The translations under genes were made by a program, and so were the position numbers. Positions 46,769-48,271 of a stretch of DNA of 51,696 nucleotides are shown in pieces. The notes beneath the pieces were generated by a model. It had not been told where the DNA came from and did not search any database. It saw nothing but the letters and a program-made list of their open reading frames with translations. Position 1 is the first letter of the stretch; the number at the start of each line of letters is the position of its first letter. Location of the stretch: the NCBI GenBank assembly GCA_947625345.1, contig CANQNX010000004.1, positions 1 to 51,696 on the forward strand. Direction: 5' to 3'. The stretch is from Candidatus Gastranaerophilales bacterium (GTDB lineage: Bacteria; Cyanobacteriota; Vampirovibrionia; Gastranaerophilales; Gastranaerophilaceae).

Positions 46769-47083
46769 ATGGAAATACTTGAGGATATTGATTTAAAAAA
46801 AGTAGGACTTGAATTAATGTTTCTCACTCCCGAAAAATGTTTGAGGGAGGAAGGTATTTCTGCAGTAGAATTATCTAAAGCACTTGATATGCCGCTTGAA
46901 ACCGTTAAGAAAAAATTGAAAATTCTTTTGGATAAAGAAATTATAAGGGTATACGGCATTAATCCGAAATTGTGGAAGTTTGACGAATTTAAATTTCAAA
47001 AAATGGACGAAGATGATGATGTATACAGACTTTTATGTAATTTTGACGATGTCGATTTTGACAGGTATTTTTCATATAATTAA
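46769..47083 (+). CDS. Small winged-helix-like protein
   Basis: A 104-residue protein with a helix-turn-helix near residues 30-60 (ISAVELSKALDMPLETVKKKLKILLDKEII) followed by a wing-like RVYGINPKLW. The C terminus is acidic and aromatic (DEDDD, FDDVDFDRYFSY). It is probably a DNA-binding regulator, with a tail of unknown role. Its final codons include the -10 of the structured RNA that follows. Confidence 0.7.
   Translation: MEILEDIDLKKVGLELMFLTPEKCLREEGISAVELSKALDMPLETVKKKLKILLDKEIIRVYGINPKLWKFDEFKFQKMDEDDDVYRLLCNFDDVDFDRYFSYN
47075..47080 (+). promoter_or_regulatory. -10 element of structured RNA
   Basis: TATAAT at 47075-47080 lies inside the last codons of the winged-helix gene. It is placed 5-7 nt before the proposed RNA 5' end (47085). 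A convincing -35 at 17 nt is absent; a TTGACA (47058-47063) sits only 11 nt upstream. Confidence 0.5.
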
Positions 47084-47084
47084 T

Positions 47085-47251
47085 GCCCTATACAAGTACG
47101 ATTTTGTTACCTGTGAAAGCTCCACAGGTGGGTAAGCGCCTTAACAAATCCGTTTCCTGCTGCAAGGCAGGTCTACTGCATTGTTATTAGAGTCAACTTT
47201 CCCTATTAATCAAGATGTAGGAACAAAATAAATACCCGTATAGAGCTTTTT
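47085..47251 (+). ncRNA. Strongly structured RNA, class unknown
   Basis: Nested pairing is visible by eye. P1 GCCCTATAC (47085-47093) pairs with GTATAGAGC (47238-47246), 8 of 9 pairs. P2 ATTTTGTT (47101-47108) pairs with AACAAAAT (47222-47229). P3 ACCTGTG/CACAGGT is a hairpin (47109-47129). P4 GGG-T-AAG (47130-47136) pairs with CTT-T-CCC (47197-47203). P5 TAACAA/TTGTTA (47142-47147, 47181-47186). P6 CCTGC/GCAGG (47156-47171). P1 runs into TTTTT (47247-47251). It does not look like tmRNA, SRP or RNase P RNA. The closing stem and size recall 6S RNA, but the P3 branch does not fit simply. It could also be a leader of the gene at 47324. Confidence 0.68.
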
Positions 47252-47323
47252 AATTATAACACTTATTTTATTAATTTTCATTACTCTTATTATATTTTTT
47301 CACTTATCTGATATAATTTTCCT

Positions 47324-48271
47324 ATGAAGAATTTATTTAAAGATTGTCTGTTAATATTATTTGTGTTTGTCGTAATGTTTTTTGTTACCGACCAGCCTTC
47401 TTTTTCACGAAATTTAAAATTCGTACAGCTTTCTGATATACATTATTCTTTAGTTCAAGACGATTCTTCGGGATATAAATTTCTGTCAAAAACCAAACCT
47501 TTATTGAAAGATGCAATATGTCAAATTAATGATATGAAAAAAATAAACTTTGTAATTATTACGGGTGACGGTATTGACAAAGCTAATAAAGAATCTTTGT
47601 ATAAGCTCACAAATGAATTAAATACTTTGAAATATCCTTGGTATTTTGCTTTAGGAAATCACGATACCACAACAAGCGGATATCTTACAAAATCTAATTT
47701 TGTAAAAATACTAAAAGAAACAAATCATGACTATACTTTTGATTCAACCTATTATACATTTAAACCCAAAGCGGGTTTCAGAGTTATAGTTTTAGACGGT
47801 GCAAAAAATAAAGGTATTTCATCTCACGGAATATTACCCGAGGAAGAATTAATCTGGCTTGACGACATTCTTAATAAATCTAAAAATGACGTTGTATTGA
47901 TATATATTCATTTTCCTCTGATTACACCATACGAAGATAAAAAACACGACATATTGAATGCAAAAGAGTTTAAAAATATTTTATCCAAGTATAATATGCC
48001 CATTGCAATATTTTCAGGTCATTATCATGCAACAAAAATAACAAAAAGAGGAAATATTCTTCATGTTTCAACTCCTGCTCTTTCTCAGTATCCTAATGCT
48101 TTCAGAGTCGTTGAAATTGAAACCAAAAGAAAACAAGTTATATTCAAAATTGAATTTATTGAAACGAGATTAAAAGATATTCAGAAAAAATCAAAAATTG
48201 TAATGCTCGGCGGTGCAAAATTTTACGGAAAACCTGCGGACAGAAATGCTGTTATAATTATTGATAAGTAA
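47324..48271 (+). CDS. Exported metallophosphoesterase
   Basis: A 315-residue calcineurin-fold phosphoesterase. The N-terminal hydrophobic stretch (about 8-22) is a signal peptide or anchor. Metal motifs follow: SDIH (D38, H40), ITGDG (D82), LGNHD (N112-D114), YIHFPL and GHYHAT. The second motif is GDG rather than the more usual GDN/GDL. The substrate is unknown. It is the first of three rightward genes and lies 73 bp after the structured RNA. Confidence 0.85.
   Translation: MKNLFKDCLLILFVFVVMFFVTDQPSFSRNLKFVQLSDIHYSLVQDDSSGYKFLSKTKPLLKDAICQINDMKKINFVIITGDGIDKANKESLYKLTNELNTLKYPWYFALGNHDTTTSGYLTKSNFVKILKETNHDYTFDSTYYTFKPKAGFRVIVLDGAKNKGISSHGILPEEELIWLDDILNKSKNDVVLIYIHFPLITPYEDKKHDILNAKEFKNILSKYNMPIAIFSGHYHATKITKRGNILHVSTPALSQYPNAFRVVEIETKRKQVIFKIEFIETRLKDIQKKSKIVMLGGAKFYGKPADRNAVIIIDK

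What the first reader, a model, noticed from the sequence alone, without database searches (positions are those of the whole stretch)
47085..47251. Highly structured intergenic RNA of unknown class
Six helices, two of them long-range, can be drawn by hand in 167 nt. A TATAAT sits at the right distance before the 5' end, and the closing helix runs directly into TTTTT. The three-way layout does not simply match tmRNA, SRP, RNase P or a riboswitch core I know; 6S RNA is the closest in size. It could be a divergent 6S RNA, a new small RNA class, or a leader controlling the phosphoesterase operon.
Basis: partly seen in the sequence, partly recalled or inferred. Interest (0 to 1): 0.68.

Follow-up and report, generated by a model that had tools for sequence, protein, structure and literature searches.

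The report
6S RNA, on the opposite strand
The structured stretch is a gene for 6S RNA, a widespread bacterial RNA that blocks RNA polymerase by imitating an open promoter; it is read from the strand opposite to the one proposed, and it is ordinary apart from being a rather divergent copy in a gut relative of the cyanobacteria.

Summary
The structured RNA is real and is a 6S RNA (Rfam RF00013), but it is encoded on the MINUS strand, 47251 down to about 47079. Rfam scores it 50.5 bits against a cut-off of 46.4, full length, with nothing credible on the + strand. The genome is a Candidatus Gastranaerophilales (non-photosynthetic sister lineage of cyanobacteria) and holds one copy. Across 43 homologues 96.5% of pair cells are standard and 28 of 47 pairs show compensatory change on both sides. 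Four signs fix the strand: 213 G-U against 9 A-C cells; better folding of the minus strand in 43 of 43; an exact TATAAT before the minus-strand 5' end in 34 of 49 loci against 5 of 49 on the other side; a T-run at the minus-strand 3' end in 38 of 49 against 19. The + strand TATAAT is the Tyr-Asn codons ending the neighbouring gene; the TTTTT is the complement of the RNA's 5' AAAAA. A phosphoesterase leader is excluded: wrong strand, and that gene adjoins the RNA in only 3 of 49 loci. Likely function, inferred from homology: reversible inhibition of housekeeping RNA polymerase, relieved by pRNA synthesis. Ordinary; a new member of a known kind.

The parts
47079..47251 (-). 6S RNA gene (5' end near 47251, 3' end near 47079-47085)
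   Evidence: RF00013, 50.5 bits, model 1-187; lineage model R1 185.7 bits, though the window sequence is one of the 43 it was built from
47253..47281 (-). Promoter of the 6S gene: -35-like ATGAAA (47281-47276), 17-base spacer, extended -10 TGnTATAAT (47261-47253)
   Evidence: exact TATAAT at this side in 34 of 49 loci, TG extension in 30
47222..47229 (-). 5' strand of helix P2 (AUUUUGUU), part of the putative pRNA template; pairs with 47101-47108
   Evidence: invariant or compensated in 43 of 43
47101..47108 (-). 3' strand of helix P2 (AACAAAAU)
47204..47221 (-). 5' side of the central bubble (UCCUACAUCUUGAUUAAU region); predicted pRNA start opposite C at 47217
   Evidence: C35 invariant in 43 of 43; start site itself is inferred
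47131..47203 (-). Apical (internal) arm, where other 6S RNAs carry the -35-like contact
   Evidence: helices 3-7, 11 or more pairs with two-sided change
47109..47129 (-). Hairpin in the 3' side of the central bubble (ACCUGUG...CACAGGU)
   Evidence: helix 8, 3 of 5 counted pairs with two-sided change
46769..47083 (+). Convergent neighbour: 104-aa winged-helix-like ORF; source of the + strand TATAAT. Not part of the 6S gene
   Evidence: HTH_20 23.0 bits, below its cut-off of 27
47324..48271 (+). Divergent neighbour: calcineurin-like phosphoesterase gene. Not controlled by this RNA as a leader
   Evidence: Pfam PF00149, E 9.2e-18; adjacent in 3 of 49 loci only

Best explanation
It is the 6S RNA gene of a Gastranaerophilales bacterium, transcribed from the minus strand from its own extended -10 promoter. 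Shown here: family match, conserved rod with a central bubble, conserved orientation and promoter. Inferred from established 6S biology: the RNA imitates an open promoter, binds the housekeeping sigma-RNA polymerase holoenzyme when nutrients are scarce, and is released when the polymerase uses the 5' side of the bubble as template for a short pRNA (predicted 5'-GUAGGAACAAAAU, from C at 47217).
For: Single full-length Rfam match above the curated cut-off. Found in 49 of 58 relatives and 254 of 292 genomes of the phylum. 28 of 47 pairs with two-sided change, covariation score 0.461 against 0.208 shuffled and at most 0.086 slid. Strand: 213 G-U against 9 A-C cells, 43 of 43 fold better, conserved promoter and T-run. 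Reciprocal match of the lineage model to cyanobacterial 6S RNAs, up to 51 bits, E 7.6e-12. UUUUGnUCCUACA motif shared with cyanobacterial 6S. Sigma-70 region 1.2 proteins in the genome. Mechanism from PMC8876501 and PMC5721685.
Against: The Rfam score is only 4 bits above the cut-off and some relatives fall below it. No expression, binding or pRNA data for this lineage. A central-bubble collapse helix after pRNA binding is predicted in only 6 of 43, although it is not a general requirement of 6S RNA.
Confidence: 0.96

Rival explanations
1. A + strand small RNA of a new class, with promoter TATAAT at 47075-47080 and terminator TTTTT at 47247-47251.
For: The + strand also folds better than shuffles (z -3.5), as expected of the complement of a structured RNA.
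Against: No family match on that strand; G-U/A-C balance 213 to 9 for the other strand; exact TATAAT on that side in 5 of 49 loci only; the window's TATAAT is coding sequence.
Confidence: 0.01
2. A cis-acting leader or riboswitch of the phosphoesterase gene.
For: It lies 73 bases before the start codon of that gene in the window.
Against: Transcribed away from the gene; the phosphoesterase is adjacent in only 3 of 49 loci while the RNA is conserved with many different neighbours.
Confidence: 0.01
3. A 6S-related RNA that has changed function, for example an Ms1-like RNA that binds core polymerase rather than the sigma holoenzyme.
For: Divergent from the Rfam consensus (50.5 bits against 90-116 in many cyanobacteria); sequence alone cannot show the partner. 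Ms1 binds core polymerase (abstract of PMC9130861, listed).
Against: The bubble and P2/pRNA template region are the most conserved parts and are shared with cyanobacterial 6S RNA.
Confidence: 0.03

Closest known systems
6S / SsrS RNA, Rfam RF00013, above all the cyanobacterial form (ssaA)
   Same: Full-length model match on the minus strand, closing stem, central bubble, apical arm, 3'-bubble hairpin, shared UUUUG(A/U)UCCUACA-type template region, about 173 nt, single copy.
   Different: Lower score (50.5 bits, many cyanobacteria 90-116), A+U richer; neighbours vary, and in most of the same genus the upstream ORF is one shared protein family.
Bacillus subtilis 6S-1 RNA
   Same: A stable hairpin on the 3' side of the bubble in the free RNA and a pRNA predicted to start with G (PMC8876501).
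   Different: The collapse helix described for 6S-1 is predicted here in only 6 of 43 homologues.
Ms1 RNA of Actinobacteria
   Same: Structurally related to 6S RNA according to PMC9130861 (abstract seen).
   Different: No Ms1 match in any Rfam scan of this region; Ms1 binds core polymerase, not tested here.

Membership tests
6S RNA (RF00013) | Covariance-model score at or above the curated cut-off, full length | tested here: met
   50.5 bits against 46.4, positions 1-187
6S RNA (RF00013) | Rod with closing stem, central bubble and apical arm, supported by covariation | tested here: met
6S RNA (RF00013) | Independent gene with its own promoter, conserved in the lineage | tested here: met
6S RNA (RF00013) | Homology to undoubted 6S RNAs of a related group | tested here: met
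   lineage model R1 matches cyanobacterial loci, E down to 7.6e-12
6S RNA (RF00013) | Binding to the housekeeping sigma holoenzyme | not testable with these tools
   sigma-70 type proteins are encoded in the genome, nothing more
6S RNA (RF00013) | Template for pRNA synthesis and release | not testable with these tools
   start base C35 invariant in 43 of 43; pRNA itself not shown
Cis-regulatory leader of the phosphoesterase gene | Same strand as, and conserved next to, the gene it controls | tested here: not met
   opposite strand; adjacent in 3 of 49 loci

The most novel reading that the evidence does not exclude
A 6S RNA that has diverged in function in gut Gastranaerophilales, for instance in which polymerase form it binds, or in a release step that does not use a collapse helix.
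Probability: 0.04. Interest if true: 0.4.

Novelty: new member of a known kind. Interest (0 to 1): 0.12.

Why it matters
It shows that the non-photosynthetic gut sisters of cyanobacteria keep the global RNA regulator of RNA polymerase in genomes of about 2 Mb, and that the Rfam model runs close to its limit there: most genomes scored as lacking 6S RNA do have it when a lineage-specific model is used (20 of 29). That is useful for annotation but not surprising. No paper in the open library searched mentions 6S RNA together with Gastranaerophilales or Melainabacteria; subscription papers and Rfam's own member lists were not checked.

Tried and rejected
The + strand reading (no family match, no conserved promoter, wrong G-U/A-C balance). 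The phosphoesterase leader (strand and context). A central-bubble collapse helix after simulated pRNA binding (6 of 43). Real absence from some genera: mostly a limit of the Rfam model, since the lineage model finds it in 20 of 29 genomes that the Rfam search had missed; the other nine are not resolved, and three of them (G139, G183, G297) are about 99% complete. Other Rfam matches at E about 0.5 (AaHKsRNA20, snoZ159) are far below their cut-offs and taken as chance. The intrinsic-terminator scan found none on either strand in this region.

Full report
What was claimed.

Is the structure real? Yes. The + strand folds at -46.2 kcal/mol, z -3.5, but its complement folds better, -54.4 kcal/mol, z -5.04. 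A scan of the whole window against all Rfam families gives exactly one match at the curated threshold: RF00013, 6S/SsrS RNA, 47251 to 47079 on the minus strand, 50.5 bits against 46.4, model positions 1-187. With relaxed filters on the small region the 6S match on the minus strand is again the only credible one.

Host and distribution. The nearest named relatives of the flanking phosphoesterase come from Candidatus Gastranaerophilales MAGs. The own genome has one 6S copy. Of 58 genomes (the own one and its relatives), 49 have a match at E <= 0.001 and 40 are above the cut-off; of 292 genomes of the phylum, 254 have a match. A covariance model built from 43 homologues finds the RNA in 20 of 29 genomes that the Rfam search had missed; some of these matches are partial. 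The same model matches cyanobacterial-type 6S loci at up to 51 bits, E 7.6e-12, so the homology is reciprocal.

Covariation. On a sequence-only alignment of 43 distinct homologues, RNAalifold predicts a closing stem, a central bubble, an apical arm and a hairpin on the 3' side of the bubble. Of 47 pairs, 28 have two-sided compensatory changes; 96.5% of cells pair, against 82.5% in shuffles and 39-47% when partners are slid; covariation score 0.461 against 0.208 and at most 0.086. The alignment's consensus energy with RIBOSUM scoring is -94.6 on the minus strand and -76.5 on the + strand, against about -26 and -24 in column-shuffled alignments.

Which strand? Four signs say minus. (1) In the consensus pairs there are 213 G-U cells and 9 A-C cells; A-C here would be G-U on the other strand. 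This structure was predicted on the minus strand, which favours it somewhat, but the gap is very large. (2) The minus strand folds better in 43 of 43 homologues. (3) In the roughly 25 bases before the 5' end an exact TATAAT is found in 34 of 49 loci, and a TG one base before the best hexamer in 30; before the 5' end of the opposite strand an exact TATAAT is found in 5. In the window it is ATGAAA, 17 bases, TATAAT with the TG extension. (4) A run of four or more T at the 3' end is seen in 38 of 49 loci on the minus strand and 19 on the other. In the window itself the minus-strand 3' end is only weakly T-rich (GGGCATTAAT) and no terminator was found, so the exact 3' end is uncertain. The + strand TATAAT is TAT AAT before the TAA stop of the ORF 46769-47083, whose ...YFSYN end is kept in the homologues next to other 6S genes.

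Context. The phosphoesterase lies beside the RNA in only 3 of 49 loci. In 24 loci the upstream ORFs are relatives of one another, with an RNNYGG motif that looks to me like S41 peptidases (not tested), reading towards the RNA. In 8 loci of other families a set of related ORFs follows that looks TsaE-like (not tested). The RNA is an independent gene, not a leader.

How it works. 6S RNA imitates an open promoter, binds the housekeeping holoenzyme and is released by synthesis of a pRNA on the 5' side of the bubble (PMC8876501). A cyanobacterial homologue was reported to bind E. coli polymerase, inhibit transcription and template pRNA, and to promote SigA recruitment during recovery from nitrogen starvation (PMC5721685). 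In the present RNA the most conserved stretch is UUUUGnUCCUACA, the P2 5' strand and the start of the 5' bubble; a cyanobacterial-type 6S has UUUUUUGAUCUACA. C35 (window 47217) is invariant in 43 of 43, and I predict the pRNA 5'-GUAGGAACAAAAU. The 3'-bubble hairpin resembles that of B. subtilis 6S-1, but a collapse helix after pRNA binding is predicted in only 6 of 43. Four sigma-70 region 1.2 matches are encoded in the genome. Shown: identity, strand, conservation, structure. Inferred: expression, polymerase binding, pRNA.

Verdict. A known kind of RNA, new only as an individual, divergent member.

Noticed in passing
L044 (G020:C30:11772-11945) and L049 (G020:C2:60292-60465): One relative of the same genus carries two full-length, clearly different 6S RNA genes (179.1 and 177.6 bits with the lineage model), as B. 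subtilis does with 6S-1 and 6S-2; one lies close to a contig end, so contamination of the MAG (3%) is possible.
   Followed up: partly
window 46769-47083: A 104-aa winged-helix-like ORF (HTH_20 23.0 bits, below cut-off) with a strictly kept ...CNFDDVDF(D/E)RYFSYN C-terminus adjoins or lies near the 6S gene in at least 7 loci of the genus, convergent with it; function unknown.
   Followed up: partly
window 47313-47324: A TATAAT ends only about six bases before the ATG of the phosphoesterase gene, which would suggest a leaderless or nearly leaderless transcript from that start.
   Followed up: no
G139, G183, G297 (relatives): Three genomes about 99% complete gave no 6S RNA with either model; only 86 candidates were scored per genome, so absence is not established.
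   Followed up: no
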